Assembly (NCBI GenBank): GCA_010672825.2
Contig: JAAHFU020000001.1
Location: 310,001-374,000 of the forward strand
Origin: Leptolyngbya sp. SIO1E4
GTDB taxonomy: Bacteria > Cyanobacteriota > Cyanobacteriia > Phormidesmidales > Phormidesmidaceae
Length of the DNA stretch: 64,000 nt
Direction: 5' to 3'
The notes under the pieces were generated by a model that had not been told where the DNA came from, searched no databases, and was given only the letters and a program-made list of their open reading frames with translations. This document shows positions 43,224 through 62,005 of this stretch, in pieces. Position 1 is the first letter of the stretch. Each line of letters opens with the position of its first letter. The position numbers were made by a program, and so were the translations under genes.

Positions 43224-44650
43224 TACAATATCAGCCCTGAATTAGGCCAGATGCGGATGGTGGCAGTCGTCTAGACTCACCCAGCGCCAGAATCCCTAGC
43301 ACGGTAATTGTGCAGAGAGACGGCTTGAGTTAACCGCACCAGAATTTTTGAAATCGACGTGTTGATGTATGGGTAGGCCGTCGCCAGAAATAGACAAAGC
43401 GATCTTGAAATCCACGCTTTCTGGGTGGCCTTAAAATCTATAGGTGCTTGCAATTAAGCAGTCTCCAAAAACTGCCTCAAAACCGTTCAAAAATGCTTAA
43501 TTAAGCCATAGAAACGGCGATCTAGAGCAGTTTTAACCTCACTGCAAAGCGTATCCTGACAGTTCTAGAGCCCAAAAGGCCATGCTAAAAAGCAGGAATG
43601 AGGTTGGGCTAAACGTCGCGATCGCCGTTACCTTTACAGCTTGAGCCAGAAGAATTTTTAAAAGCCACGCCGACTCCACACAAACAAGTGTCCAATCTAT
43701 GGGGAGAAGGCTGACTAGCGCCTAAATCAATACAGTCGAAATAGGGTTCCAGAAGGTTTAATGGATAACGCTTGACTGCAAATGAATGCTGCAAGAGATA
43801 CCTTTAAAAATTTCGACTGTTCTCACAAAAATCCGGAGAGGTTTTTACAAATCAAGATTTAGGACTTTACCCACTGACTGTGTAATCTGCAACAATCCTT
43901 CAAGATGCACCTTCAAAAATTTCAACTCTCTGGGTATCAGTCCGGAAAGTTTTAGCTATGAGGAAGGTATCCTCACTGCCTTAACCACAACACGTTGATA
44001 GAGAGCGTTGATAGAGAGATCTAAGACCGTACTCTGCCATCCACACCCCGGAAGAACCCAAAGGGCTATGTCTCGCCACGGTACAAAACCTCTGAAGACG
44101 GTTGCAAGAGGATTTCAGAGCTTTAACGAAGTCTTTATGAAGTAGCCTGGGTTCTTTCCGTATCTCCTACAAATAGGGGAATTCAAGCTAGAGCCCTCTT
44201 GGTGTCAGCACCTTCAAAATCAGCCATGACCGCCCCTCATCGCTATCTATCGCCACCTCACCGCCTGCGGCACCGTCCCTTGGCAAGGGGCGGTGGAGGG
44301 GGTCTGATCGGTCGCTTTAAAGACGAGAACGGGCATGGCCGGACGACTCCATGAGCGAGCCTCATAAAACGCCCAACCATTGGGCAGCTTTACACACCTC
44401 TCCTTACAGCCTTGAGGGATCTTTCTCAAAACCGAGGGCACCTGTAAACACCCGCAGGGTCTCAAGAGATACTCGGACAGATGGATGACCCGATGTATGA
44501 ACTGACTCACCTAACCTCATCCGGATATCCTCGTAGCTATCATCACTCTCCAGGTAGCCACCGTCACTCTACGGACGCGTATCCAACCAGACATTTGTGG
44601 ATATCCGTCAAACTTCTACACATTAAGCAGCAGAAATATTAAGAAACAGT

Positions 44651-44670
44651 AAATCAATTTATTTTGATTT
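44651..44670. promoter_or_regulatory. Inverted repeat upstream of first pix locus
   Basis: AAATCAATTTATTTTGATTT is an inverted repeat (7-bp arms, 6-base spacer). A related TCAATTTATTTTTTTTGATTT occurs at 54849-54869, at a similar distance (about 1.1-1.2 kb) upstream of the second locus, which suggests a conserved site. The factor is unknown. Confidence 0.35.
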
Positions 44671-45044
44671 GACGTTTCGCAGACTTTTATCTGAATATGA
44701 ATTCATAAGCCCCGCTGCGGTTAAAACAAACCTGGAACCAGCGCTGGACACCCCCTCCAGCGGCCAGGCGCAGCTCCTCAGCAGGAAAAGTTGAAGCGGG
44801 TCTCTTTTTCTAAGTGTCAGTCAGACCTGCATCCACTTTTTCTGATGTGGTTTCCAATTATGGTCTACCGAAGGTTCAGAGTATCTCATTCATTAAGAGT
44901 GCATTGACTTCGCCAAACCTGACTGGGTGCCCCACACAACCAAACACACTCAATCCGTCCCTTTTGAACGTTTTCTTAGAGGCAGCGCGTAATCGTTTGA
45001 CAGGTTCTAAGAGAAAGGCCTGACACGCTTATTCGCCTATTAGC

Positions 45045-45105
45045 AATCAGGGTAATTTCGAAAGTCGAAAACTGTGTTCTACCGCTTCTATTAGAGAAAG
45101 CATTC
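45045..45105 (+). promoter_or_regulatory. Upstream element shared by the two pix loci, copy 1
   Basis: The stretch beginning AGCAATCAGGGTAATTTC and running through AAAACTGTGTTCTACCGC aligns with 55203-55262 (AACAATCAGGGCAATTTT ... GCTGCACTCTACTG) with roughly 60-65 percent identity by eye. Both lie 700-800 bases before the pixG-like starts. Confidence 0.5.
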
Positions 45106-45748
45106 ACAGTGGAATAGCACTGACTCAACCCTTTATGAATTCGCGAAAATCTTGATTTTCGTACGGTGGGTACCGCCCACCGCCTTTACGTCAGTGCCAC
45201 TCATCCACAGCGTTGTCGGTCATTGTCTTCATCTATACAAGGTAGCAAGCGCAACAGGTTTATCGATTATAGAGACCTCTTTAAAGGCGCCCTTCAAGAT
45301 GATCAGATGATTGTCAGACCTTTCTCTCCACAGTACCCACAGGAAATTGATTGGTTCTAACCTACCGTTCTTCAAACCAATTCTTTGAAATAGCTTCATC
45401 TTGCTTTCTGGCTCTTTTCGGCCATAACGGATGGAATCTTGATGCCTTATATAGCTGTGCTCTAATCCCTTAGAGCATTGTTATCGGGCAGCAAAATCAA
45501 CTCAATTCCTGAGTTGAAGCATTCAACATCCTGAGTCCGCACCCAGTTACAGCCTTAAGGAGTTTTGGGATCCCTATCGCGTTTCCCCGTTGGTGCAGTC
45601 CATTCTAGGCCTTAATCTCTTGCCCCTGCCTCAACCAGGGTGTACTGCAACTGACTGAAACAGACGATATCTCACTCATCGATTCAGTCGTTGAGGCGAT
45701 GAAGCTTGTTTATCTGACCATTCCGTTGTTAACGCAAATAAGGCTGAA

Positions 45749-46927
45749 ATGCGCACAGAATTAGGACCTCCTGATATGACCCGCTATCGTTATCGCTCGC
45801 CCCAAGAGATTCACTTGCTCAGTGTTCTGGCGCAGACAGTCAGTCGACAAGCTAGTGGCTGTTTAAGCGTCACTGATGAAACTCATACCTGGACACTCTA
45901 CCTGGAGCGAGGCCAGCTGATCTATGCCTCCAATTCGCTAGATCCTTTTGGTCGGCTGGATCACCATCTGCGTCGGCTGAGTGCCCAAATTCCGGCACTG
46001 GCCAGCCCGGTGCGAGTACAGGTCAGACTCTTGTTTGAAAAGTCGATGGCAGAGGATATCGGTCGCTGCTGGGACTATGAAGCAATTTGCTGGTTAGTAG
46101 AGCAGCAGTACCTCACACCTCAGCAGGCAGCTGACCTCATCGAAGCATTAGCCAAAGAAGTGTTGGAAACGCTGCTGCCCCTGCATCGAGGAAACTATGA
46201 CTTGTTGGCAAAAGGGCTGCTGGCACAGCTACCTCGGTTCTGTCAGCTAGATTTACGAGTCCTGGTAGAGGCCTGCCATGTCCATCGACTGCGGCAACAG
46301 GCGTCCAATTCAGGCAAGCGTACCGTTAAAGCCCCAGTGCCACCCAGTCCCCCACTGCGGAACCCAAGCGTTCAAGCAAAGCCCGCTCCCTTACAGAACC
46401 CGGCAGCGCAGCCGCAGAGCCCCCCTTTGCAAAACATTGTCGTGCAGCCTGATAAACCGGGGATTCGTCGCTGGAGCCCTCCTGCAGCCCCTGCTTCGAT
46501 GACGCCTGTGACGCCCGTGACCCCGCCCCCAGCGTTGCGATCTCCCGGCACGTTGTCAAAACCGACCTACACCGTTGCCTGTATTGACGACAGCCCGACT
46601 GTTTTGCAGGCGATCGAGGCCTTTTTAGATGACAAAGCCTTTAAGGTTTTACAGATCGAAAATCCAGTCAGCGCGCTGATGAAGATTATCCGCAACAAGC
46701 CGGATCTGATTTTGCTGGACGTAACCATGCCCAACCTGGATGGTTATGAGCTGTGCTCACTCCTCCGACGTCACCCTTCTTTCAAACAGACCCCCATCAT
46801 CATGGTGACCGGTAATACGAGTTTGATTAATCGCGCGAAGGCAAAAATAGTCGGCGCTTCGGGTTATCTGACTAAACCCTTCACGCAGCCAGACCTGCTA
46901 AAAATCGTGTTCAAGCACCTGAAATAG
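45749..46927 (+). CDS. pixG: PatA/PixG-type response regulator (PATAN/DUF4388-REC), locus 1
   Basis: The 392-residue protein has an N-terminal DUF4388/PATAN-type domain (about 10-190; ASGCLSVTDETHTWTLYLERGQLIYASN, CWLVEQQYLTPQQAADL), a proline-rich linker (about 195-268) and a C-terminal receiver domain. In the receiver, IDDSPTVL supplies the acidic pocket, the phosphoacceptor Asp is in LILLDVTMPNLDG and the Lys in YLTKPFT. This is the architecture of PixG, PatA and related cyanobacterial regulators, which in phototaxis act on pilus motility. An AAGG five bases before the ATG at 45749 supports the start, and the same context is conserved at the paralogue (56022). First gene of a G-H-I-J-L-ordered cluster. 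The name is given by order and architecture, not by function test. Confidence 0.82.
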   Translation: MRTELGPPDMTRYRYRSPQEIHLLSVLAQTVSRQASGCLSVTDETHTWTLYLERGQLIYASNSLDPFGRLDHHLRRLSAQIPALASPVRVQVRLLFEKSMAEDIGRCWDYEAICWLVEQQYLTPQQAADLIEALAKEVLETLLPLHRGNYDLLAKGLLAQLPRFCQLDLRVLVEACHVHRLRQQASNSGKRTVKAPVPPSPPLRNPSVQAKPAPLQNPAAQPQSPPLQNIVVQPDKPGIRRWSPPAAPASMTPVTPVTPPPALRSPGTLSKPTYTVACIDDSPTVLQAIEAFLDDKAFKVLQIENPVSALMKIIRNKPDLILLDVTMPNLDGYELCSLLRRHPSFKQTPIIMVTGNTSLINRAKAKIVGASGYLTKPFTQPDLLKIVFKHLK

Positions 46928-47030
46928 ACCTCTTTTACACCTGCTTTCAGCCACGATATCAGCGGCTTAAAGCCCCTAGCTCCCAGCTCAACCTCAGTTT
47001 CTTAATCCAATCAGTTCCTTATTCAAACAG

Positions 47031-47417
47031 ATGACACCCATGAGTATTACGTTGACCCAAACCATCTTGATCGTTGAAGATACCCCTTCTGAAATGGAGC
47101 TTATGAGGTGCTACCTCTTAGAGGATGGCTACACCGTTATCGGTGCAGCAACCGCCCAGGAAGCGATCGATAAAGCTGTGGAGCTTAACCCTGCTGCCAT
47201 TGTTACGGATGTTGTGATGCCGGGTATGAGTGGCTTTGAACTTTGTCGCAGCCTCAAGAAGGCTCCGGCGACAGCCAACATCCCAGTCATCATCTGCTCG
47301 TCTAAAAATCAGGAAATTGACCGGCTATGGGGCATGAAGCAAGGGGCAGATGCTTATATCACGAAGCCCTTTACGCAGTCACAACTGGTTCGAGCGGTCA
47401 AGTCGGTCACATTTTAG
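47031..47417 (+). CDS. pixH: CheY-like response regulator, locus 1
   Basis: The 128-residue single-domain receiver has VEDTPSEM for the acidic pocket, the phosphoacceptor Asp in AIVTDVVMPGMSGFELC and the Lys in AYITKPFTQ. The WGMKQGADAYI phrase is typical of the PilH/PixH branch of cyanobacteria. Start ATG at 47031 or 47040. The PixI-like gene begins four bases after its stop, so the two are surely cotranscribed. It would receive phosphate from the PixL kinase. Confidence 0.85.
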   Translation: MTPMSITLTQTILIVEDTPSEMELMRCYLLEDGYTVIGAATAQEAIDKAVELNPAAIVTDVVMPGMSGFELCRSLKKAPATANIPVIICSSKNQEIDRLWGMKQGADAYITKPFTQSQLVRAVKSVTF

Positions 47418-47421
47418 AAGT

Positions 47422-47928
47422 ATGCATACATCAGCCATCGTTAAACTCTCAACTTCAGCCCCCAAAATGGCCGGGGACGCTTACTTAAAGTTCCATCTAG
47501 ACCCTGAGCAAGCGGCCATCTTCTCAATGCAACATGTTCAGGAAGTATTTACCCTGGCTTTACCACAGCTCACACCGATGCCCAATATGCCCCCTTGTAT
47601 GTTGGGCCTCATCAATCACCGTAACCGTGTTTTATGGGTTGTGGATTTAGCACTGCTGCTCAAGCTAAATCCATTAGATACCGCAGCCCAGCAGTACAAC
47701 TTGATTGTGATTCAGGTTGGGACGCTCAGCTTGGCGCTCGCTGTACAGCAAATTGCCGGAATGACTTGGTTTGAAAGTAATCGGATTCAATTGCCCACAG
47801 GAGGAGCCACTGCTGGGGTCATGCCTTACCTACGAGGCTGCATTTGGCAGGACGAAGCCCCCTTGCTGCTGCTAGATACTGCTGCCATTAGCCAGGCTTC
47901 AATGCTTAGAAACTTAGCACCCTCATAG
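47422..47928 (+). CDS. pixI: CheW-like adaptor, locus 1
   Basis: The 168-residue protein is a CheW domain throughout: YLKFHLDPEQAAIFSMQHVQEVFTL at the start, TPMPNMPPCMLGLINHRNRVLWVVDLALLLKL in the middle, and YNLIVIQVGTLSLALAVQQIAGM. CheW couples the chemoreceptor signalling tip to the CheA kinase. The ATG at 47422 is right after the regulator's stop; the longer frame to 47350 overlaps that gene and is rejected. A 271-base gap separates it from the receptor gene and could hold a second promoter. Confidence 0.88.
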   Translation: MHTSAIVKLSTSAPKMAGDAYLKFHLDPEQAAIFSMQHVQEVFTLALPQLTPMPNMPPCMLGLINHRNRVLWVVDLALLLKLNPLDTAAQQYNLIVIQVGTLSLALAVQQIAGMTWFESNRIQLPTGGATAGVMPYLRGCIWQDEAPLLLLDTAAISQASMLRNLAPS

Positions 47929-48199
47929 GCCAGGCATTTCTGACATACCCGACACCCGCTTATTGCAGTCTGTCACCCGCCCATAGATCGAGCAATAGAG
48001 CTAAACCTGAACCGAGGTTCTAGACACCGATTAAGCACTGACTAAGCGCCTGTAAATACCTTTGCAAACCTGGCTATGGGGCTTTGCCCTCTGGTCTAAT
48101 TTCCCCTGCCATTCACACACCTGCTCCCTGCATCTATCTTTCATGACTCGATTGAGTGCTACACCGCAATTTTCTTAATTTTCTCAAGGATGTTTTGCC

Positions 48200-51100
48200 A
48201 TGACTAATAGCGTTAGCCCCTTATCCCCAATGGGTACCGTTGATGTTCAGCCAACCAAGGCTGCCACTGGCCCCAACGACGCTGCAGCAACGACGAAGGT
48301 GGCTCAAACCCAGGCCGTCTCCCGCCCTGGAACTGATGATGCGTCTTGGCAGCTGACTGCCCAGCAGCCGCCTAAAGCCAGCAGTCTGCGCTTTCAACTG
48401 CTACGCGGCGTTCTACCGGCTGTCTTAGTTCCGCTGGCAATCGCAGGGGTCATGGTACAGCGAGTAGCCCACAATCGGTTAATGCAGGAGACCTCTGAGC
48501 AAGTCAGCAGCAAAGCCCTACTGGCAACAACCCTGACGCCCCGCTATATCAATGAGCTAGAAACGGTGCCCACACTCGTCGCTGACGCTGGCAGCTCTCA
48601 GCAGGTGCAGGTAATCGATGTCAACACGGGTAAGGTGCTGAAAACCCTGGACACCCAAGGCAACAGCGATTCGCAACCCGTCACGGGAGGCAACGCTGTG
48701 GCAGACGCAGCTCAGGGCTTAAGCAAGACGCCCTCGACGGAGCTGGCTCGCAATCGTTTCAAGGCTGAACTGACCACAAAATATGGCTTCAAAAATGTTG
48801 CCCTTGAACCCCTCAACATCGATGCTGCCCAACCGGGCGTCATGCTGTCATTCCAGCATAATCAGCGTCACTACTATCTCTCGACTCAGGCTGCAACGGG
48901 TTTAGTGGCGATCGCCTCAATCGAGACCCGCGAACTCGCCACAGCGGGCAATCAGCTAGCGCTGACGTTCTGTTTGGTCATCCTAGTCGCCGCCGGGGTA
49001 TCTACCGCAATTCTGGCCGGGCTAGTCAATCAGATCTCGAATCCACTGCGCTATCTCTCTAAAACAGCCGAACAGGTCACCGCCGGAAATCTTGATGTCT
49101 TGGCCCCGGCCTACGGTGCCCAAGAAACCCAAACCTTAGCCAACACCTTTAACGCCCTCGTCACCCAGGTCAAAGGGTTTGTACAAGAACAGGCCCAGGG
49201 TGTTGATCAAGCTCGACTGCTCTCAGAAATCGCCGGTTCCCGCGTTTACAATCACAAGAACCTCGCAAAAGTTTTCAACAAAGCCCTCATTGAGACTCGG
49301 ACAGCCTTAGCGGTCGATCGCGTCGTCGTTTATCGCTTTAACTCAGACTGGAGCGGCTACATCTCCCACGAATCCGTGGCCACAGGCTGGCCTGAAGCCC
49401 TCAATGACAAAATTGAAGACCCTTGCATTCCCCTAGAGCTGATCGAGGCTTATCAAAAAGACCGGGTTGTGCCCACCAATGATGTCTTTAATGCAGGCTT
49501 TCATCCCGATCACCTGAAGCTGATGGAGCGGCTGCAAATCAAGGCCAATCTGGTGGTTCCCATCTTGAAAGAGGGGCAGCTCTTTGGCTTACTGATTGCC
49601 CATCATTGCGCAGAAACCCACGCTTGGCAGAACTCAGAAGTGACCTTTATGCGCCAGCTGGCGGCCCAGCTCGGCAATATGTTGGATCAGCTCACCTATC
49701 TGCAAGCCCGCGATGCAGAAACAGAACGGGCAGAGTTCTTAAAAGATTTCACCCTAGAAATTACCCGCGCTGAGACCCCCAATGAAGTCTTGAATAAACT
49801 GCCCCTCAGACGGGTTCGCCAGGCCCTGCAGGTGGATCGGGTCCTGGTCTATCGGTTCGATGAAACCTGGAACGGCACCATCACCCACGAGTCGGTTGCC
49901 CCTGAGTGGCCCCAGGCCATTGGGGCTGAGATCTACGACCCTTGTTTTGAAAAAAACTATGTGGAGAAATATCAACAGGGACGCGTACAGGCAACCGCCG
50001 ATATCTATAACGCTGGCTTGACCGCCTGTCACCTCCAGCAGCTAGAACCCTTTGCCGTTAAAGCAAATCTTGTTGCCCCCATCAAACAAGGGGATACCCT
50101 GCTGGGCCTGTTAGTGGCCCACCAATGCACTAGCCCACGTCAGTGGCAGAAACAGGAAGTTGACTTCTTTACTCAGATTGCCACCCAGATCGGGCTGGCG
50201 CTAGATCGCAGCGAACTGTTGATTCAGAGAGAGGCTGCAGCGGCAGAGGCGCGATCGCTTGCAGCCGAACAGCAGCAGCAAAAAGAAGCGCTACAGCTGC
50301 AGTTAGTCAATCTGCTGGGTGAGGTAGAAGGGGCTGCCAGTGGTGATTTGACCGTGCGTGCCGATGTCACAGCCGATGAAATCGGCACCGTGGCTGACTT
50401 CTTTAACTCCATCATTGAAAGTCTGCGGCAAATTGTGACCCAGGTTAAACACTCAGCGCAGCAGGTCAACCAGTCGGTCGGGCAAAACGAAGCTGCCACT
50501 CGCCAACTAGCCGACAAAGCCCTCGGCCAAGCTGAAGACATCTTTTTGACCCTCAGCTCAGTCGAGAAAATGACCCAGTCTATCCACTCAGTGGCGGAAA
50601 GTGCCCACCAGGCGGCTCAGGTCGCTCGCACGGCTTCGGCCACCGCCGAATCTGGCAGTATTGCCATGGAGCGTACGGAGCGCAATATTCTCATGCTGCG
50701 TGAAACCGTTGGCATGACGGCTAAGCAGGTGAAGCGTCTGGGTGAATCTTCCCAGCAAATCTCGCGGGTAGTCTCCCTGATTAATCAAATTGCGGTTCAA
50801 ACCAACCTGCTCGCCATTAACGCTGGCATTGAAGCAGCCCGCGCTGGGGAAGAGGGGCAAGGCTTCGCGGTGGTTGCTGAAGAAGTGGGTGAACTGGCCA
50901 ACCGCTCAGCTTCGGCCACCCAAGAGATTGAAAAAATCGTCGACGTGATTCAGCGCGAAACCGCTCAAGTGGTGGAGGCCATGGAGCAAAGCACCACACA
51001 GGTAGTTGAGGGCACTCGCCTAGTAGAAGACACCAAAACTAGCCTGGGTCAAATCCTCAAGGTTTCTCGCCAGATTGACCAGCTCGTGCAGTCTATTTCA

Positions 51101-51286
51101 AATGCGACGGTCTCTCAGGTAGAAACCTCCGCAGACGTTTCCCACCTGATGCAAATGGTGGCAGAGGTCTCTAAGCAGACCTCCAACTCATCGTTGCAGG
51201 TATCTGATGCCTTACGCTCCACAGTGGTTATTGCTGAAGAGCTGCAGGCATCCGTTGGCACATTCAAAGTTAACGCTGAGGGGTAA
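48200..51286 (+). CDS. pixJ: Methyl-accepting phototaxis receptor with tandem GAF domains, locus 1
   Basis: The 1028-residue receptor has a long hydrophilic N-terminus, TM1 (about 67-90), a periplasmic domain, TM2 (about 252-275), a HAMP domain (to about 330), GAF1 (about 345-500), GAF2 (about 520-680), a second HAMP-like segment (about 700-755) and a methyl-accepting signalling domain with the tip [39 protein letters not shown]2 has DPCF (Cys582) and ACH (Cys610), 28 residues apart, the arrangement of DXCF cyanobacteriochromes. GAF1 keeps DPC (Cys409) but has Asp437 where the chromophore Cys should be. The order resembles PixJ, whose second GAF binds bilin. AAGGA lies about 9 bases before the ATG at 48200. 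The kinase gene follows after five bases. Confidence 0.88.
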   Translation: MTNSVSPLSPMGTVDVQPTKAATGPNDAAATTKVAQTQAVSRPGTDDASWQLTAQQPPKASSLRFQLLRGVLPAVLVPLAIAGVMVQRVAHNRLMQETSEQVSSKALLATTLTPRYINELETVPTLVADAGSSQQVQVIDVNTGKVLKTLDTQGNSDSQPVTGGNAVADAAQGLSKTPSTELARNRFKAELTTKYGFKNVALEPLNIDAAQPGVMLSFQHNQRHYYLSTQAATGLVAIASIETRELATAGNQLALTFCLVILVAAGVSTAILAGLVNQISNPLRYLSKTAEQVTAGNLDVLAPAYGAQETQTLANTFNALVTQVKGFVQEQAQGVDQARLLSEIAGSRVYNHKNLAKVFNKALIETRTALAVDRVVVYRFNSDWSGYISHESVATGWPEALNDKIEDPCIPLELIEAYQKDRVVPTNDVFNAGFHPDHLKLMERLQIKANLVVPILKEGQLFGLLIAHHCAETHAWQNSEVTFMRQLAAQLGNMLDQLTYLQARDAETERAEFLKDFTLEITRAETPNEVLNKLPLRRVRQALQVDRVLVYRFDETWNGTITHESVAPEWPQAIGAEIYDPCFEKNYVEKYQQGRVQATADIYNAGLTACHLQQLEPFAVKANLVAPIKQGDTLLGLLVAHQCTSPRQWQKQEVDFFTQIATQIGLALDRSELLIQREAAAAEARSLAAEQQQQKEALQLQLVNLLGEVEGAASGDLTVRADVTADEIGTVADFFNSIIESLRQIVTQVKHSAQQVNQSVGQNEAATRQLADKALGQAEDIFLTLSSVEKMTQSIHSVAESAHQAAQVARTASATAESGSIAMERTERNILMLRETVGMTAKQVKRLGESSQQISRVVSLINQIAVQTNLLAINAGIEAARAGEEGQGFAVVAEEVGELANRSASATQEIEKIVDVIQRETAQVVEAMEQSTTQVVEGTRLVEDTKTSLGQILKVSRQIDQLVQSISNATVSQVETSADVSHLMQMVAEVSKQTSNSSLQVSDALRSTVVIAEELQASVGTFKVNAEG

Positions 51287-51291
51287 TTACG

Positions 51292-54200
51292 ATGTCTGAT
51301 GCGAGGGAACTAGAAATTAAGCGACAGTTTCTGGATGAAGCCCAGGAATATCTCCGCCCGTTAGAGGCCGCGCTATTAGGGGTTGCCCAGGGCCAAGTAG
51401 AGACTGCAAAAATGAACGGTGCACTGCGGGCCGCCCATTCCATCAAAGGGGGTGCAGGGATGATGGGCTATCCGGTGCTGAATCAGCTAGCCCATAAGCT
51501 AGAGGATTCCTTCAAAGTGTTAAAGCTGCAAAAGCAGCAAATAGAGATAGACGCAGCGTTAGAGCAGCAGTTGCTGGCAGCCGTTGACTGTCTGGGCCAG
51601 GTTATTGCCTGGCACCAACAGCAGAAGCCGGTTCAGCCGTCATGGGTAGAGCGCCATGCCATGCCGATTTTTGAGCAGCTGCACCAGCGTCTGGGCGAAC
51701 CGCAAGCCGAAGACGCTACTTCGATGCTGTCGCCCGAAGATGGCCAGAACATTATCCCGATGCTGTTTGAGACGGAGGTGGAAGGCTGTTTACAGCGCCT
51801 AGAGACGATCTTGGCCGATCCACAACAGCCCTGTCTCAATGAAGAGGTGATCATCCTGGCGCAGGAGTTGGCGGGCCTTGGCGAGATGTTACAGCTCACT
51901 GCGTTTACGACCTTATGCCATTCGGTGGTAGCGCAGTTGGAAGCTGCCCCTGAACAGCAGGAACAGATCGCCCAGCAGGCTGTGGCCGCCTGGCGGCGAT
52001 CGCAGGCCCTGGTGCTGACCGGGCAACTTGAGCTGTTACCCACAGCGATCACGGCAGCGCCTTCCCCAGACAGCCCCACAGCAGAGGCCGTTGCCGCCCC
52101 TCAATTCATCCCAGTCAATGGGGATACCTTTGAGGCCCAGATACCATCCCCCGTGGCGGCATTCCCTGAGGTTTCAGTGGCAGCCGAAGTGGTCACCGAT
52201 GCCCCCACCTTAGCTGAGCCTTCCTTAGCTGAGCCCTCCTTAGCTGAGCCCACGTTAGAAGCCGCAGCACCAAAGGCATCCACTCGTCGCTTTAAGGTGC
52301 TCGCGACTCCCCCTGTTGGCCCATCGTCGGAGGCTGCAGAGCGAAACACCACTGTGCGGGTTTCCGCTCAGCGGCTCAATGCGCTTAACGATCTGATGGG
52401 TGAACTCACCACCGAGCGCAATGGCCTGACACTCAACGTCAACCGGCTGCGCAGCCTCGTAGACATGCTCAAACAGCGAGCCCTAACCCTCGAAACCGCC
52501 AATAGCCAGCTACGAGCTATCTACGATCAAGTCTCTATTGGCCAATCCCTGGCGATGTCAGCGCGGCAACCTGCCACCCCCGCCAAGAACGGCAGCCCTA
52601 ACCACGGGTCACTGCCTGCCCACGACCACACCTTCGATACCCTGGAGATGGATCGCTACAGCGACCTGCATCTGCTCTCCCAGGAGATGATGGAAACTAT
52701 CGTCCAAATTCAGGAAGTCACAACCGACATCGAACTCGAACTGGAAGACACGGAACAAACGGGGCGGAGCTTCAACAAAACGGGCAAGCAGCTACAAAAT
52801 AAACTCACCCAAATGCGGATGCGCCCACTATCTGATGGGCTAGAGCGCTTTCCACGCGCCCTGCGGGAACTGTGCCTGCAACATGGCAAAGAGGCGGAGC
52901 TAAAAGTGGTGGGTGGCCAGACTCTGATTGACCGCAATATCTTAGAAACCCTGACCGACCCGCTGATGCACTTGTTGCGCAACGCTTTTGATCACGGACT
53001 CGAAGATCCCGAAACGCGCATGGCCGCGGGTAAGTCGCGCCAGGGTCTTATTGAGATCAGCGCCACCCATCGCCATAATCGCACCGTCATTACCGTGAAG
53101 GATGATGGTCGTGGCATTCCCCTCGAAAAGATTCGGCAGCGGGCTGAACAAATGGGGCTAGACGCGGATCTGCTGGCCGCAGCCAGCGAGCCAGAACTGC
53201 TGTCACTGATTTTTGAACCGGGCTTTTCGACATCGGCAGCCGTCACCGATCTCTCGGGTCGAGGCGTTGGGATGGATGTCGTGCGCAACAATCTGCAGCA
53301 GGTGCGGGGTGAAATCACGGTGGAGACTGACCCAGGTCAGGGAACCACCTTTACTCTCTCGGTTCCCTTTACCCTCTCGGTCGCTCGCATCCTTTTGGCC
53401 GAAAGCCAGACGATGGCCCTCGCCATTCCTACCGATACGCTGGAAGAAATTTTGGTGCTACCACCAGACGATATTGCCTCCGCCACCCAAAAGAAAACAT
53501 TGAAATGGGGCGATCATGACATTCCGTTGATCCAGCTCTCCCACTGGCTAACTTTTAATGGGGCTCGCCCGACCTACAGGCTCGAACTCCCGCCAACAAT
53601 CGATGCCTTCACGGTTTTGATCGTCAATTATGGGGGGCAGCCGGTGGGGTTACAGGTCGATCGCTGCTGGGGAGAACAAGAAGTCGCAATCCGCCGAGTC
53701 GAGGGAGATTTGCCCTTACCACCGGGCTTTAGCAACTGCACAATTTTGGGAGATGGTCGCGTTGTTCCGCTGGTAAGCATTCCAGAGCTACTGCGCTGGA
53801 TTACTAGTCAGCAGCGATCGTCGCTTGCCGATCCGCCATCTCCCGCCAGCCTCCCTTCCCCGTTTGCAGATCATTTCCATCGACAATCGGGAACGCTGGC
53901 GTCTCAAGTCGCGCCGACTCGGCCTAGCCTGCTGATTGTAGATGACTCCATCAATGTCCGACGGTTCCTGGCCTTGACCCTAGAAAAAGTGGGCTATCGG
54001 GTTGAACAAGCCCGGGACGGACAGGATGCCCTGGACAAATTACACAATGGCCTGTGGCCCCAGGCCATCATCTGCGACATTGAAATGCCCCGGCTCGATG
54101 GCTTTGGGTTTCTGGCAAAAGCAAAAGCCGATACCAACACGGCCCCTATTCCGGTGATCATGCTAACGTCCCGGAATAGTCAGAAGCATCGCCAACTCGC

Positions 54201-54294
54201 GATGGGCCTCGGCGCAACCGCCTATTTCTCTAAACCCTATAACGAACACATCCTCCTGCAGACGCTAGAGCAGTTGGTTGACGCCGCCGCTTAA
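51292..54294 (+). CDS. pixL: CheA-like hybrid histidine kinase, locus 1
   Basis: The 1000-residue kinase starts with an Hpt domain (His49 in RAAHSIKGGAGMMG), then a second region with a degenerate Hpt-like helix bundle (EDGQNIIPMLFETEVEGCLQRLE) and a linker with three AEPSL repeats. Next come the dimerisation helices, the ATP-binding domain (HLLRNAFDHGLED, KDDGRGIPLEK, DLSGRGVGMDVV, GQGTTFTLSVPF), a CheW-like regulatory domain and a C-terminal receiver (Asp in AIICDIEMPRLDG, Lys in YFSKPY). It phosphorylates PixG/PixH-type regulators in response to the receptor. The layout is that of PixL. A strong terminator follows at 54329-54364. Confidence 0.9.
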   Translation: MSDARELEIKRQFLDEAQEYLRPLEAALLGVAQGQVETAKMNGALRAAHSIKGGAGMMGYPVLNQLAHKLEDSFKVLKLQKQQIEIDAALEQQLLAAVDCLGQVIAWHQQQKPVQPSWVERHAMPIFEQLHQRLGEPQAEDATSMLSPEDGQNIIPMLFETEVEGCLQRLETILADPQQPCLNEEVIILAQELAGLGEMLQLTAFTTLCHSVVAQLEAAPEQQEQIAQQAVAAWRRSQALVLTGQLELLPTAITAAPSPDSPTAEAVAAPQFIPVNGDTFEAQIPSPVAAFPEVSVAAEVVTDAPTLAEPSLAEPSLAEPTLEAAAPKASTRRFKVLATPPVGPSSEAAERNTTVRVSAQRLNALNDLMGELTTERNGLTLNVNRLRSLVDMLKQRALTLETANSQLRAIYDQVSIGQSLAMSARQPATPAKNGSPNHGSLPAHDHTFDTLEMDRYSDLHLLSQEMMETIVQIQEVTTDIELELEDTEQTGRSFNKTGKQLQNKLTQMRMRPLSDGLERFPRALRELCLQHGKEAELKVVGGQTLIDRNILETLTDPLMHLLRNAFDHGLEDPETRMAAGKSRQGLIEISATHRHNRTVITVKDDGRGIPLEKIRQRAEQMGLDADLLAAASEPELLSLIFEPGFSTSAAVTDLSGRGVGMDVVRNNLQQVRGEITVETDPGQGTTFTLSVPFTLSVARILLAESQTMALAIPTDTLEEILVLPPDDIASATQKKTLKWGDHDIPLIQLSHWLTFNGARPTYRLELPPTIDAFTVLIVNYGGQPVGLQVDRCWGEQEVAIRRVEGDLPLPPGFSNCTILGDGRVVPLVSIPELLRWITSQQRSSLADPPSPASLPSPFADHFHRQSGTLASQVAPTRPSLLIVDDSINVRRFLALTLEKVGYRVEQARDGQDALDKLHNGLWPQAIICDIEMPRLDGFGFLAKAKADTNTAPIPVIMLTSRNSQKHRQLAMGLGATAYFSKPYNEHILLQTLEQLVDAAA
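52210..52254 (+). repeat. 15-bp coding tandem repeat in pixL locus 1
   Basis: TTAGCTGAGCCTTCC and two near copies (52210-52224, 52225-52239, 52240-52254) encode three Leu-Ala-Glu-Pro-Ser/Thr blocks in the linker before the dimerisation domain. Repeat-number variation would keep frame. Confidence 0.85.
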
Positions 54295-54328: not shown

Positions 54329-54364
54329 CAAGCTTGCGCCTTCCGGTGCGAGCTTGTTTGTTTT
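54329..54364 (+). terminator. Rho-independent terminator after pixL locus 1
   Basis: Arm CAAGCTTGCGCC, loop TTCC, arm GGTGCGAGCTTG with two G-U wobbles, followed by TTTGTTTT. It lies 35 bases after the kinase stop and probably ends the first pix transcript. Confidence 0.85.
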
Positions 54365-56021: not shown

Positions 56022-57125
56022 ATGCGCACAGGATTAGGAACTTCTGATATGACCAGCTACCGTTATCGCTCTCCCCAAGAGCTTCATTTGCTCAGTGTTC
56101 TGGCGCAGACGGTCAGTCGACAAGCCAGTGGCTGTTTAAGCGTCACTGATGCAACCAATACCTGGAAACTCTACCTCGAGCAAGGCCAGCTGGTCTATGC
56201 CTCTAATTCGTTAGATCCCTTTGGTCGACTGGATCGCCATCTGCGTCGGCTGGGTGCCAAAATCCCGGCACTGGCCAGCCCCGTGCGGGTACAGGTAAGA
56301 CTCTTGTTCGAAAAGACAGCCGAAGAAGCAGATGCCAACCATTGTTGGGACTACGAAGCGGTTTGCTGGTTAGTCGAGCAGCAATATCTCACCCCGCCGC
56401 AGGCAGCTGAACTGATTGAAGGATTAGCCAAAGAGGTTTTGGAAACGCTACTGCCCCTGCGCCTGGGGAACTACGATTTGTTAGCCACAGGGCTGCTGGC
56501 ACAGCTACCTCGGTTCTGCCAGCTAGATTTACGGGCGTTGGTAGAGGCGTGTCAGGCGCGTCGGCTCCGGCAACAGACTGCCAATTCGGCCAAGAGCGTC
56601 CCCAAATCTCCCCTATCACGCAGTTCCCGACTGAAACCCTCCATCGTTCAACCCGAGAGCCCCCAACCTCAGAGTGTGAGTCGGCCTTCAGCACCAGCAT
56701 CTGCAGGGCGAGGAACCGCGCCTACGCGAGAGTCGCGATCGCCCCGATTGCGGGAAAAGACCACCTACACCGTTGCCTGCATTGACGACAGCCCGACCGT
56801 CTTGCATGCGATCGAAGCCTTCTTAGAGGACAAAGCCTTCAAGGTTTTGCGCATCGAAGATCCGATTAGCGCGCTGATGAAGATTATCCGCAATAACCCA
56901 GATCTCATCTTGCTAGATGTGACCATGCCCAACTTAGACGGCTATGAGTTGTGCTCACTGCTCCGACGTCATCCCTCCTTCAAACAAACCCCCATCATTA
57001 TGGTGACCGGCAATACAGGTCTGATTAATCGCGCTAAAGCAAAGCTAGTGGGTGCTTCGGGTTATCTGACTAAACCTTTCACGCAATCTGACCTGCTTAA
57101 AACCGTCTTTAAGCATTTGAATTGA
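56022..57125 (+). CDS. pixG: PatA/PixG-type response regulator (PATAN/DUF4388-REC), locus 2
   Basis: The 367-residue paralogue of the 45749 gene is nearly identical in its PATAN part (MRTGLGTSDMTSYRYRSPQE against MRTELGPPDMTRYRYRSPQE) and in the receiver (LILLDVTMPNLDGYELC, GASGYLTKPFTQ), with a shorter and less proline-rich linker. One notable change is an EADANHCWDYEAV insert of a few residues before the middle helices. The same AAGG-CTGAA-ATG context is present. It opens the second G-H-I-J-L cluster and presumably partners with the kinase at 62006. Confidence 0.82.
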   Translation: MRTGLGTSDMTSYRYRSPQELHLLSVLAQTVSRQASGCLSVTDATNTWKLYLEQGQLVYASNSLDPFGRLDRHLRRLGAKIPALASPVRVQVRLLFEKTAEEADANHCWDYEAVCWLVEQQYLTPPQAAELIEGLAKEVLETLLPLRLGNYDLLATGLLAQLPRFCQLDLRALVEACQARRLRQQTANSAKSVPKSPLSRSSRLKPSIVQPESPQPQSVSRPSAPASAGRGTAPTRESRSPRLREKTTYTVACIDDSPTVLHAIEAFLEDKAFKVLRIEDPISALMKIIRNNPDLILLDVTMPNLDGYELCSLLRRHPSFKQTPIIMVTGNTGLINRAKAKLVGASGYLTKPFTQSDLLKTVFKHLN

Positions 57126-57270
57126 ACCCCAGTCTTCATTGAGAGATGAGAGAGTCGTCATTCTGGCCAGCCTCGCTGATTCGTCATCGTTATCTGGGTG
57201 CTGCCAGTCGACAGCCTTGCAGCGTTTTAGTTGCCGTTGCCCAGTTGTCAATACCTTAAGGAAAGAAATT

Positions 57271-57657
57271 ATGCAGACCACTCTGACCGGCACTGTCTTA
57301 GTCGTCGACGATACCCCTTCCGAGATGGCGCTCATGAGCCACTACCTGCGTGAAAGGGGGTGCTTGGTGATTACCACCAACAGCGCCCGAGAGGCTCTGA
57401 CCAAAGCCGCTCAGCAACAGCCCGACGTTATTGTGACGGACGTGGTAATGCCGGGAATGAGCGGGTTTGAACTCTGTCGCAGCCTGAAAAAACATCCTGA
57501 AACAGCCCATGTGCCGATCGTGATCTGTACCTCCAAAAGCAACGATATTGATCGCCTGTGGGGCATGAGACAAGGGGCGGATGCTTACCTCACTAAACCG
57601 TATACCCAAGAACAACTGGTGCAGGTCGTGAGTTCAGTCATGAAGGGGAATCGATGA
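57271..57657 (+). CDS. pixH: CheY-like response regulator, locus 2
   Basis: The 128-residue receiver from the ATG at 57271 (AAGGAAAG upstream; the open frame reaches back to 57139 without conserved content) has VDDTPSEM, the phosphoacceptor Asp in VIVTDVVMPGMSGFELC and the Lys in AYLTKPYTQ, closely matching the locus 1 regulator. Its stop overlaps the start of the CheW-like gene (ATGA), a sign of translational coupling. Confidence 0.85.
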   Translation: MQTTLTGTVLVVDDTPSEMALMSHYLRERGCLVITTNSAREALTKAAQQQPDVIVTDVVMPGMSGFELCRSLKKHPETAHVPIVICTSKSNDIDRLWGMRQGADAYLTKPYTQEQLVQVVSSVMKGNR

Positions 57658-58187
57658 ATTTAACTGACGCTAAATCCCAAGAATCAGGGCAGATTGTCTC
57701 CAGCGTAGGAACGGCTCTGGCCCCTAAGCGGACAGTCCGATATGCCCACAGCTATGTAAAATTCCGCCTCGGCCATCAATGGGCTCTACTGCCGACCCAT
57801 CAAGTGCTGGAAGCGATTACGGTACCTACTGCCAGCGTTACGCCGATGCCCAATATGCCCGCTGCCATATTGGGGCTTATCAATCGCCGGAGTCAGGTGC
57901 TGTGGGTTACAGACCTGACGTTACTCCTTGGAATGCCGGCTGCCTATCTCAACTCTCAACAATACAACCTGGTACTGCTGCAGATTGGTCATGTCCTGAT
58001 AGGGCTACAGGTTCAGGAGATTGAAGGCATTCTGAGCATTCCTCCCGATCAAATTTGTGCTGCCCCGGCCAATATTCCAGCCGGGATAGCCCCGTTTTTA
58101 CAGGGATGCTTTCTCCAAAACAATGACGTGGTGCTAGTGCTGAATGCTGAAGCGGTGCTGCGAGCGCCAGCACTCCAGCCTAGGTAG
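57654..58187 (+). CDS. pixI: CheW-like adaptor, locus 2
   Basis: The 177-residue CheW domain has a short extra N-terminus. The conserved core is VKFRLGHQWALLPTHQVLEAI, TPMPNMPAAILGLINRRSQVLWVTDLTLLLGM, YNLVLLQIGHVLIGLQVQEIEGIL and APFLQGCFLQNNDVVLVLNAEAVL. The start overlaps the preceding stop by four bases. The 161-base gap to the receptor gene resembles the larger gap in locus 1. Confidence 0.88.
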   Translation: MNLTDAKSQESGQIVSSVGTALAPKRTVRYAHSYVKFRLGHQWALLPTHQVLEAITVPTASVTPMPNMPAAILGLINRRSQVLWVTDLTLLLGMPAAYLNSQQYNLVLLQIGHVLIGLQVQEIEGILSIPPDQICAAPANIPAGIAPFLQGCFLQNNDVVLVLNAEAVLRAPALQPR

Positions 58188-58348
58188 ATACCACTCTCGA
58201 TGCTGTGCCCTTGGGTTGAGCCGTCACTCATCTGATCCAGAGTTCATGGTTTCCGCTGAGAACGCTTGTCAAGGTCGCATCTATCTACCCCCAAACCACT
58301 TTACTGCGCGTACACACGACTCTTCCTTATTGTGAGGTTAGCTGACCT

Positions 58349-61300
58349 ATGACTACAGAATTTCCCCCCTCTTCTCGCAATCTGTCTGCCAATGTCACTG
58401 AAGGGACTAGCGAGATAAACGGCACCCGCATCTTTAACGACAACGATACCCATAATACAAACGGGGCGAATGGCAAGATGAGTCGTGACAAAAGCGAGAA
58501 TCTGTTGGCTGTTGATGCTAACCCTACCGCCACCAATGATCGCACCCCCCCCCCTAATACAGACACAGACCCTAAAATGACGGTGACCCAGCCGACCCGC
58601 TTCCGGTGGCTGCAGTGGTTAAGTAACTTCAAACTGGGTCAAAAGCAGTTAATTAGTATCTTGGCCACAGAACTCATCGCAGTCGTCGGTCTGGTGGGGG
58701 CGGGGTCATTTCTAATTATCACGAACGGTCGCAGTGAACTCGCTGAACAGGCAAAATCTGAGCTGGCACTCCAGGAAACTGAATACAACATCAAAATTGA
58801 CCAGATGGGGCTGGGCTTCCGAAACCAGTCGAACAACAGCGCTCTTGTCGATGTCGCCCAACTCTATGCCGAGGGTGAGAGTCCTTCAACCGCAGCGATC
58901 GCGGCTACACGCCAGCTGCTAGAAAACACGCTCGAGACCTATCAAATCGAGTACGCCACCCTGGTAGGGGATGATCTCAGAATTATCGCCAGCGCTAATG
59001 GCGATCGCGCCGGAGAAAAATTCGATCCTCAAGGGCTGGTGGGCACGGTACTTCAAAATCCTCGTCAGGTGAAGGTGAGCGCCATTGTTAGCCAGGCCGA
59101 ACTGCAAAACGAGCAGCCCTCGCTACCCACAAACTTCTCAGGCGAAGACGCTCTGATCCGCTACACGCTGACCCCAATCACCGATCCAACCTCGGGTACC
59201 GCCCTTGGCGTCCTGGTCTCTGGCGATATCGTCAACGGCAAGCCAGCCATTGTTGAAAACACCTTAAACTCCTTTGAAACTGGCTATAGCGCCATCTACC
59301 AGTACCAAGCAGACGGGGGCTTCACCCTCGCCACATCCCTGAATATCCCTGACGGGGGCGCAGCCGCAGCCAACATTTCTTTAGAAACCTCAGATTTGTT
59401 AGAACAGGCCACTGCAGCGGATGGAGAAGTGGTGTCGGGTCGAGCCCCCATCGGGGACGAAACCTATACCCTGGCCGCTAAAGCGATTGAAAACTTCAAC
59501 GGTGAGCCCGTCGCCATCCTCGTACGAGGAACCTCTGAAGCCTCCCTCAACGCCCTGGTGAGCCACAGTCTCAAATTACAGCTGGGGGTCGCTGCGATCG
59601 CCTTAACCGGCAGTATGATTCTGGCCCAGCTGCTGGGTCGCTCTATTTTGAAGCGCGTGAAAAACCTGCATCAAGCAGCCTGGCAATTTGGCATGGGCGA
59701 TCGCAGCGTCCGTGCTGACATTTTCTCGACTGACGAACTAGGCCAGGTCGCCCAGTCCTTTAACCAGCTCGCCGACAACATCACCAACTCAGAAGCTCTG
59801 CTACAGCAGCAAAAGGAGCGCCAGGGGGCCAACGCCAACCGCGCCCGCTTACTCGCTGACCTGACCACCCGCATTCGTCAATCCCTCGACCCCGCAACCA
59901 TCGTCGACACTGCCGTAGAGGGCATTAAAGGGGTTCTGGCCGTTGATCGCGTCCTGTTCTACCGCTTCAACACTGACCTCACCAGCGGCGAGATTACATC
60001 TGAAGCCGTGGATCGTCCCTGGAAACAAGCAAAAGGCTCAACGATTGAAGATCCCCTCACCCCAGAGGCCCTGGCCCGCTACCGGACAGGCCAGGTCACT
60101 TACATGGAAAATCGAGAGCAGGCCAAAATTTCCCACTGCCACTGTGAAATTCTGGAGCGCTTAGAGGTTAAAGCCAACATGGTGGCTCCTCTGTCAGTGG
60201 GAGACGCACTCCTCGGTTTGCTCTGCGTGCACAAATGTTCGGCCCCCCACAAGTGGGAACCCGAAGAAATTGACCTGCTACAGCAGCTGGCCGTTCAAAT
60301 TAGTGCAGCTTTAACCCAAGCGCGTTTGCTAACCGAACAACGCAAAACCGTTGCTCGAGAACGACAGCTGGCTGAAATCACCGGCCTAATCCGTCAGTCC
60401 CTTGACGAAGAAAGCATCTTCGCCACCTCGGTCGAGGGCTTGCGAGAAGTCCTCAACGTCGATCGAATGCTGATTTACCGCTTCAGTTCCGACTTCAAAA
60501 GCGGTGAAATTACAGCCGAATCGGTAGTGGGCGATTGGGTAAGAGCCAAAGGAACGCTGATTGAAGATCCGCTGACGCCGGAAGATTTGGAACGCTACTA
60601 CACCGGCCACGTCACCTACCGAGAAGACCGGAACAACGAACACGAAGCTGGGGCCATCACCCACTGCCACTGCGCCATTTTAGAGCGGCTACAGGTACAG
60701 GCCAACATGGTCGCTCCCCTGTTTGTAGGCGATAACCTCATCGGGTTACTCTGTGCCCACCAATGCTCTGGCCCCCGTCGCTGGGATGAGCTCGAAATCA
60801 ACTTCGTCAAGCAGGTCGCCATCCAACTCGGCTTCGCCGTAGAACAGGCTCGCTTATTTTCTCAAACCCAGGCCCTCTCAGAAGAACATCTGCTGCGAGA
60901 GCAGGAGCTACAGGCCCAGCTCGTACAGTTGCTCACCGATGTAGAAGGGGCGTCCCAGGGTGACCTCACCGTCCGAGCTGATGTGACCGCAGGCGAAATT
61001 GGCACCGTAGCTGACTTCTTTAATGCCATTGTGGAAAGCTTGCGTCAGATCGTCATCAAGGTGAAGCAGTCAGCCGAACTGGTAAACGTCTCGGTCGGAG
61101 AAAACGAAGGCGCCGTCGAAAGCCTGGCCCAAGACGCGCTCAAACAAGCCGAAGAGGTCACCCATATTCTGACACCCTTAGACCAAATGACCCGGTCTAT
61201 TCAGCAAGTGGCAGATAGTGCCCAGCAGACCGCGCTTGTGGCTAACAATGCCTCTAGCACTGCCGAAACGAGCGGTCAGGCGATGGACCTAACGGTGCAG

Positions 61301-61897
61301 AACATCCTCAACCTGCGGGAAATCATTGGCGAAACCTCCAAAAAAGTGAAGCGTCTTGGGGAGTCATCTCAGCAAATTTCTAAGGTGGTGTCCCTGATTA
61401 ATCAAATCGCCATGCAGACTAACTTATTAGCAATTAACGCGGGCATTGAAGCAGCCAGGGCTGGAGAAGAAGGTCAAGGATTTGCAGTAGTGGCTGAAGA
61501 AGTCGGTGAACTGGCCGCCCGTTCTGCCGATGCGACCCAGGAAATTGAGCGGATTGTCGAAACCATTCAGCGGGAAACCGTCGAGGTCGTCGACGCAATG
61601 GAGCAGAGCACAACTGAAGTGGTTGCCGGGACTCGCCTGGTAGAAGACGCCAAGCAAAACCTGAGTCGCATTTTAGAGGTTTCCATGGAGATCGATGAGC
61701 TAGCGCAGTCTGTTTCTGAAGCCACCGTTTCCCAAGTGGAGGTGTCTGAAACAGTCACCTATCTGATGCAGGACATTGCCCAGGTCTCAAGGCGGACCTC
61801 TGAGTCTTCATTGCAAATCTCCGATTCCCTGCGGCAGACCATTAATGTGGCCCGAGCCCTTCAAGAATCTGTCGGGATGTTCAAGACAGGTGAGTAG
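58349..61897 (+). CDS. pixJ: Methyl-accepting receptor with Cache-like and tandem GAF domains, locus 2
   Basis: The 1182-residue receptor has a hydrophilic N-terminus containing a ten-C coding tract, TM1 (about 101-124), a periplasmic Cache-like domain of about 275 residues ([38 protein letters not shown]), TM2 (about 408-430), HAMP (to about 490), GAF1 (about 500-660), GAF2 (about 670-835), a second HAMP-like segment and a methyl-accepting domain with a near-identical tip to locus 1. Both GAF domains have HCHC (Cys597-His598 and Cys773-His774) at the chromophore-Cys position but DPLT instead of DPCF, so they are not DXCF-type. Whether they bind bilin is unknown. The periplasmic domain suggests an additional chemical input. 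Confidence 0.85.
58545..58554 (+). repeat. Homopolymeric C10 tract inside pixJ locus 2
   Basis: Ten consecutive C residues (58545-58554) encode part of Thr-Pro-Pro-Pro in the N-terminal tail before TM1. Slippage would shift the frame early and truncate the receptor. Confidence 0.9.
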
Positions 61898-62005
61898 CGG
61901 CAGGGAGATTGGGAAGTCAGGGGGTAGATTCAACGCTCCCCCGTTTCCCCCTCCCGCTTTTCCCTTGCGTCTTTCCCCTTGCACTGGTCTTCATTGATAT
62001 ACGCT

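What the first reader, a model, noticed from the sequence alone, without database searches (positions are those of the whole stretch)
49757..50230. Predicted DXCF-type cyanobacteriochrome GAF in a phototaxis receptor
GAF2 of the locus 1 receptor has DPCF (Cys582) and ACH (Cys610-His611). The 28-residue spacing equals that between the DXCF cysteine and the canonical chromophore cysteine in TePixJ (Cys494 and Cys522). Together with the surrounding FEKNYVEKYQQGRV and YNAGLTACHLQQL pattern, this predicts a phycoviolobilin-type blue/green photosensor feeding a CheA pathway. The motifs are seen directly; the photochemistry is inference.
Basis: partly seen in the sequence, partly recalled or inferred. 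Interest (0 to 1): 0.72.

Follow-up and report, generated by a model that had tools for sequence, protein, structure and literature searches.

The report
Two-sensor cyanobacterial phototaxis light receptor
The flagged stretch encodes an ordinary blue/green light-sensing domain of a known type (DXCF cyanobacteriochrome) in a cyanobacterial phototaxis receptor, and the domain just before it, not flagged, looks like a second and rarer type of bilin light sensor, so one receptor may read two colour channels.

Summary
Window 49757-50230 is residues 520-677 of a 1028-aa receptor (48200-51286, +) with two predicted TM helices, HAMP, GAF1, GAF2 and an MCP domain. GAF2 has D580-P-C582-F583 and C610-H611, is 52.5% identical to TePixJ over 141 residues without gaps, groups with TePixJ in a tree, and its AlphaFold model matches blue-absorbing TePixJ at 1.0 A. 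The five genes are a textbook pixGHIJL/tax1 set: PATAN-CheY, CheY, CheW, PixJ, CheA. The genome also has heme oxygenase, PcyA and PilT. Blue/green colours and phycoviolobilin are inferred, not shown. The 28-residue Cys spacing is weak evidence on its own (209 of 219 two-Cys relatives have it).

It keeps the second Cys (DPCIP, C409), has Asp where the chromophore Cys should be, and keeps the neighbouring His. It falls in a strongly supported clade of such domains that matches the published DXCIP lineage, which binds bilin through that Cys alone. DXCIP GAF1 followed by DXCF GAF2 recurs in many cyanobacteria. The receptor is probably a two-bilin sensor. Both kinds are known; the pairing is a modest, testable point.

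The parts
45749..46927 (+). pixG-like gene: PATAN (DUF4388)-receiver protein
   Evidence: Pfam PF14332 1.4e-14 and PF00072 2.2e-27
47031..47417 (+). pixH-like gene: single-domain CheY receiver
   Evidence: PF00072 1.7e-25
47422..47928 (+). pixI-like gene: CheW (ORF listed from 47350; ATG at 47422, 4 bases after the CheY stop, is the likelier start)
   Evidence: PF01584 3.5e-25; sequence read
48200..51286 (+). pixJ-like gene: MCP-type photoreceptor, 1028 aa
   Evidence: two hydrophobic helices near residues 65-90 and 246-279; HAMP, GAF x2, MCPsignal
49022..49171 (+). HAMP domain, residues 275-324
   Evidence: PF00672 6.6e-13
49262..49678 (+). GAF1, residues 355-493: DXCIP-type cyanobacteriochrome GAF (second Cys only)
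   Evidence: PF01590; 99* clade of lone-second-Cys GAFs; model pLDDT 87 matching TePixJ
49424..49426 (+). Cys409 of GAF1 (DPCIP motif), the predicted sole bilin-attachment Cys
49508..49513 (+). Asp437-His438 of GAF1: Asp in place of the canonical chromophore Cys, conserved His kept
49757..50230 (+). GAF2, residues 520-677: DXCF-type cyanobacteriochrome GAF (the finding)
49943..49945 (+). Cys582, second Cys in DPCF (equivalent of TePixJ Cys494)
50027..50032 (+). Cys610-His611, canonical chromophore Cys and following His (equivalents of TePixJ Cys522-His523)
50699..51169 (+). MCP signalling domain, residues 834-990
   Evidence: PF00015 2.6e-40
51292..54294 (+). pixL-like gene: CheA (Hpt with AHSIKG at residue 48, HATPase_c, CheW) with C-terminal receiver
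   Evidence: PF01627, PF02518, PF01584, PF00072; H-box
54329..54356 (+). terminator-like stem-loop 35 bases after cheA, possible end of operon
   Evidence: 12-bp stem then TTTGTTTT; the scan found no more sites than shuffles (11 vs 11.1), but this is the longest stem

Best explanation
The gene is a pixJ-type phototaxis receptor in a pixGHIJL (tax1-like) operon. GAF2 is a DXCF cyanobacteriochrome. It most likely binds phycocyanobilin at Cys610, isomerises it to phycoviolobilin, forms a second thioether from Cys582 to C10 in the blue-absorbing dark state, and breaks it after 15Z/15E photoisomerisation to give a green-absorbing state. GAF1 is a DXCIP cyanobacteriochrome that most likely carries its own bilin on Cys409 alone, with a green-absorbing dark state and a slightly blue-shifted photoproduct. 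The two states act through the MCP domain on CheW/CheA, which phosphorylates the CheY and PATAN-CheY regulators that act on type IV pili. Shown here: sequence, homology, predicted fold, operon content, presence of HO/PcyA/PilT genes. Inferred: chromophores, colours, signalling direction and the motility output. The confidence given is for GAF2 as a DXCF photosensor in a PixJ receptor; bilin on GAF1 is put lower, at about 0.6 to 0.7.
For: GAF2: TePixJ E = 2.6e-46 and 52.5% identity over 141 aligned residues; D580, C582, F583, Y591, R595, C610, H611 and Q614 match TePixJ, and the equivalents of P581, C582, Y591, G594 and C610 are invariant in 50 close relatives (both Cys were selection criteria there). 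The tree puts GAF2 with TePixJ in a 14-row set (SH-aLRT 93). The model (pLDDT 90) superposes on Pb TePixJ 4fof at 1.0 A over 145 columns. GAF1: C and I of DxCI invariant in 24 of 24 (C was a selection criterion, I was not); 99* clade; 28 such domains among the 30 loci fetched from a search of 194 genomes of the class; DXCIP lineage described as using the second Cys only, with a green dark state (PMC5578081; PMC6628166). Operon matches the tax1 set described in PMC5812497. HO x2, one bilin reductase that is PcyA at 367.8 bits against a cut-off of 206, and two PilT-family genes over cut-off.
Against: No biochemical evidence of any chromophore. The TePixJ B-ring propionate contacts H498 and W499 are N586 and Y587 here, although Tyr is the family norm (201 of 212) and Trp the exception (5 of 212). 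In SyPixJ1 only the second of two GAFs binds bilin (PMC5812497), so GAF1 could be silent; SyPixJ1 was not available for alignment. DXCF GAFs with teal or orange photoproducts exist (PMC5578081), so the green photoproduct is not guaranteed.
Confidence: 0.85

Rival explanations
1. GAF2 is a DXCF photosensor but not blue/green: it keeps phycocyanobilin instead of making phycoviolobilin, or has a teal, yellow or orange photoproduct.
For: DXCF GAFs with teal, green or orange photoproducts are described (PMC5578081) and blue to green, teal, yellow or orange tuning is summarised in PMC5240096. Chromophore-contact residues differ from TePixJ at two positions.
Against: It groups with TePixJ, a proven PVB blue/green sensor, at 52.5% identity, and SyPixJ1 is also blue/green (PMC5812497).
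Confidence: 0.15
2. Only GAF2 is a light sensor; GAF1 is a structural or dimerisation GAF without chromophore, as reported for SyPixJ1 GAF1.
For: GAF1 lacks the canonical Cys. SyPixJ1 binds bilin only in its second GAF (PMC5812497).
Against: GAF1 keeps Asp, Cys, Tyr, Arg and His of the pocket, and the lone Cys with the following Ile is conserved throughout a 99* clade. The DXCIP lineage with this motif binds bilin through that Cys.
Confidence: 0.3
3. The receptor senses light but its output is not directional phototaxis: it sets the sensitivity of photophobotaxis or another pilus-linked behaviour.
For: PixJ of Phormidium lacuna acts as a negative regulator of photophobotaxis (PMC13383048).
Against: tax1 and ptx loci with similar gene content are needed for positive phototaxis in Synechocystis and Nostoc (PMC5812497).
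Confidence: 0.3
4. GAF2 is degenerate and binds no bilin.
For: None found.
Against: Every listed DXCF pocket residue is present and the protein is intact in one frame.
Confidence: 0.03

Closest known systems
TePixJ GAF (Thermosynechococcus elongatus; PDB 3vv4, 4glq, 4fof, 2m7u, 6p58)
   Same: GAF2: DPCF and CH motifs, 28-residue spacing, 52.5% identity without gaps, same predicted fold (1.0 A to 4fof), MCP receptor
   Different: N586-Y587 in place of H498-W499; two GAF domains here, with a DXCIP GAF before the DXCF GAF
SyPixJ1 / tax1 (pixGHIJL) locus of Synechocystis PCC 6803
   Same: Gene content PATAN-CheY, CheY, CheW, MCP receptor, CheA; two TM, two GAF, MCP; the second GAF is the bilin sensor
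   Different: SyPixJ1 GAF1 is reported not to bind bilin; the sequence was not at hand, so GAF1 types could not be compared
DXCIP cyanobacteriochromes (Fushimi et al. 2016, Biochemistry 55:6981, as summarised in PMC5578081 and PMC6628166)
   Same: GAF1: DPCIP motif, no canonical Cys
   Different: The characterised proteins were not available for alignment; here the domain sits in front of a DXCF GAF in a PixJ receptor, an arrangement also found in relatives
PtxD of Nostoc punctiforme
   Same: Multi-GAF cyanobacteriochrome MCP in a CheY/CheW/CheA locus for phototaxis

Membership tests
DXCF cyanobacteriochrome (GAF2) | Asp-Xaa-Cys-Phe with the second Cys | tested here: met
   D580-P581-C582-F583; aligns with TePixJ Cys494
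DXCF cyanobacteriochrome (GAF2) | Canonical Cys followed by His | tested here: met
   C610-H611; aligns with TePixJ Cys522-His523
DXCF cyanobacteriochrome (GAF2) | Phylogenetic placement with DXCF GAFs | tested here: met
   In a set of 14 rows with TePixJ, SH-aLRT 93, quick tree
DXCF cyanobacteriochrome (GAF2) | Cyanobacteriochrome GAF fold | tested here: met
   AlphaFold pLDDT 90.4; top PDB match TePixJ 4fof, 1.0 A
DXCF cyanobacteriochrome (GAF2) | Covalent bilin, PCB to PVB isomerisation, reversible C10 adduct, blue/green photocycle | not testable with these tools
   Needs expression and spectroscopy
DXCIP cyanobacteriochrome (GAF1) | Asp-Xaa-Cys-Ile-Pro in place of DXCF | tested here: met
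   DPCIP at residues 407-411
DXCIP cyanobacteriochrome (GAF1) | No canonical Cys | tested here: met
   Asp437 at that position
DXCIP cyanobacteriochrome (GAF1) | Clade with the characterised DXCIP proteins | tested here: inconclusive
   One 99* clade of such GAFs, but the characterised proteins were not in the set
DXCIP cyanobacteriochrome (GAF1) | Bilin bound through the second Cys, green dark state | not testable with these tools
   Needs expression and spectroscopy
PixJ / tax1 phototaxis system | PATAN-CheY, CheY, CheW, MCP photoreceptor and CheA in one cluster | tested here: met
   Pfam hits in order on one strand, 45749-54294
PixJ / tax1 phototaxis system | Controls directional movement by type IV pili | not testable with these tools
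   PilT genes are in the genome; behaviour unknown

The most novel reading that the evidence does not exclude
One phototaxis receptor carries two bilins attached in different ways, a DXCIP sensor (second Cys only, green and slightly blue-shifted states) and a DXCF sensor (two Cys, blue and green states). The pair then works as a two-channel colour comparator on one CheA, an arrangement conserved in many cyanobacteria.
Probability: 0.5. Interest if true: 0.4.

Novelty: new member of a known kind. Interest (0 to 1): 0.27.

Why it matters
It confirms a standard blue/green phototaxis sensor in a cyanobacterium with an 8.2-Mb genome. It also points to a recurrent DXCIP-DXCF pair in PixJ receptors. 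If both domains carry bilin, the receptor compares two overlapping colour channels before one CheA, which bears on the open question of how PixJ-type receptors respond to many colours. That is directly testable with purified domains.

Tried and rejected
The 28-residue spacing as special evidence: rejected, because 209 of 219 two-Cys GAFs have it. N586-Y587 against TePixJ H498-W499 as a sign of odd photochemistry: rejected, because Tyr is the family norm. Assigning the photoproduct colour from trapped-twist residues: left open; the paper read deals with insert-Cys GAFs and reference sequences were not at hand. Reading the DXCF lineage papers: those of Rockwell 2012 and 2015 and Fushimi 2016 were met only as citations in the papers read, and Rockwell and Lagarias 2023 is not held. 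Rfam on 42000-64000: no matches. The Foldseek matches to phytochromes and miRFP proteins are the same superfamily at lower rank and add nothing.

Full report
Check of the observation. The ORF at 48200-51286 (+) encodes 1028 residues. The flagged stretch 49757-50230 is residues 520-677. DPCF lies at 580-583 and CH at 610-611; Cys582 and Cys610 are both TGT codons, at 49943 and 50027, 28 residues apart. The match is far beyond chance: TePixJ (3vv4) is the best PDB sequence hit at E = 2.6e-46, with 74 of 141 aligned residues identical and no gap.

What GAF2 is. GAF domains were collected from loci of the own genome, 59 relatives and named cyanobacterial genomes and aligned, 279 rows. Of the rows with both the Asp-Xaa-Cys and the canonical Cys (212), 203 have Phe after the Cys and 201 have Tyr at the Y587 position. 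TePixJ has His498-Trp499 there, which contact the B-ring propionate (PMC6955287); so TePixJ is the exception and this protein is typical. A tree of 76 representatives puts GAF2 in a 14-row set with TePixJ at SH-aLRT 93 (a quick tree without bootstrap, many inner branches weak). The AlphaFold model (pLDDT 90.4) has blue-absorbing TePixJ 4fof as its best PDB match, rmsd 1.0 A over 145 columns. The 28-residue spacing is shared by 209 of 219 two-Cys GAFs, so it supports the fold but says nothing more about colour.

Surroundings. Upstream on the same strand are a PATAN (DUF4388)-receiver protein (45749-46927), a CheY (47031-47417) and a CheW (likely start 47422, 4 bases after the CheY stop). Downstream is a CheA with Hpt, ATPase, CheW and receiver domains (51292-54294). 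A 12-bp stem-loop with a T-rich tail follows at 54329-54356 (terminator-like sites are no more common here than in shuffled sequence, so this is suggestive only). This is the gene content of the Synechocystis tax1 locus (PixG, PixH, PixI, PixJ, PixL) as described in PMC5812497. The receptor has two hydrophobic helices, near residues 65-90 and 246-279, then HAMP, GAF1, GAF2 and the MCP domain. Elsewhere in the genome are two heme oxygenases, one ferredoxin-dependent bilin reductase that scores as PcyA (367.8 bits against a cut-off of 206), and two PilT-family genes over cut-off. So the chromophore precursor and a pilus motor are available.

GAF1 (residues 355-493) keeps Asp407 and Cys409 but in the form DPCIP, has Asp437 at the position of the canonical Cys, and keeps the next residue, His438. 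The same pattern was found in 24 other domains of the first collection. In the tree, 19 of these form a clade of 20 rows supported at 99 (starred), whose sister is a normal DXCF domain of Nostoc sp. T09 (L125). In an alignment of 24 of them, Cys and Ile of DxCI are invariant; Cys was a selection criterion, Ile was not. A profile search of 194 genomes of the class gave 30 fetched loci, among which 28 lone-second-Cys domains were counted. This fits the DXCIP lineage, reported to lack the canonical Cys, to bind bilin by the second Cys only, and to have a green-absorbing dark state and a slightly blue-shifted photoproduct (PMC5578081; PMC6628166, both citing Fushimi et al. 2016). I could not align the characterised DXCIP proteins themselves. 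The order DXCI GAF then DXCF GAF before an MCP domain recurs in many loci, for example L060, L062, L069, L070, L073, L083, L113, L117, L120 and L123, and further genomes show the two GAFs in the same order. In Moorena and Gloeocapsa the two types sit on neighbouring MCP genes.

Mechanism. Most likely GAF2 binds phycocyanobilin at Cys610, converts it to phycoviolobilin, and switches between a blue state with Cys582 bound to C10 and a green state without that bond, as shown for TePixJ. GAF1 most likely binds bilin at Cys409 alone and adds a second, green channel. Both would act through HAMP/MCP on CheW and CheA, then on CheY and PATAN-CheY. Shown here: sequence, homology, fold prediction, gene content. 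Inferred: chromophores, colours, direction of signalling, phototaxis. The main doubt is GAF1: in SyPixJ1 only the second GAF was found to carry bilin (PMC5812497). The motility role is also uncertain, since PixJ of Phormidium lacuna modulates photophobotaxis (PMC13383048).

Verdict. The finding is correct and ordinary: a new member of a known kind in a known operon type. The added point, a DXCIP sensor next to the DXCF sensor, joins two known kinds in one receptor and raises interest slightly.

Noticed in passing
56022-64000 (continues past the window end): A second, paralogous taxis cluster: PATAN-CheY, CheY, CheW, MCP receptor with two GAFs, and a CheA starting near 61979 that runs off the window. 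PATAN-CheY proteins of the two clusters are 73.5% identical, and stretches of DNA are 82-85% identical, suggesting a duplication or later gene conversion of that end.
   Followed up: partly
59885-60314 and the following GAF of the receptor 58349-61897: Both GAFs of the second receptor have DPLTP in place of DXCF and HCHC around the canonical Cys; they fall in a 98* clade of mostly canonical-Cys-only GAFs from the same family. Their colour type is unclear.
   Followed up: partly
49262-49678: GAF1 of the same receptor is a DXCIP-type GAF (lone second Cys), not mentioned in the finding.
   Followed up: yes
L125 (Nostoc sp. T09), GAF starting at residue 386 of the reading frame: A normal DXCF GAF (DPCF and CH) that is sister to the DXCIP clade at 97*; a possible stand-in for the state before loss of the canonical Cys.
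   Followed up: no
L084: A record titled Candidatus Gracilibacteria carries a cyanobacterial-type receptor with a DXCIP GAF; probably a misassigned cyanobacterial contig.
   Followed up: no
43224-45748: About 2.5 kb before the first taxis gene with no ORF of 90 aa or more; no Rfam match in it.
   Followed up: partly
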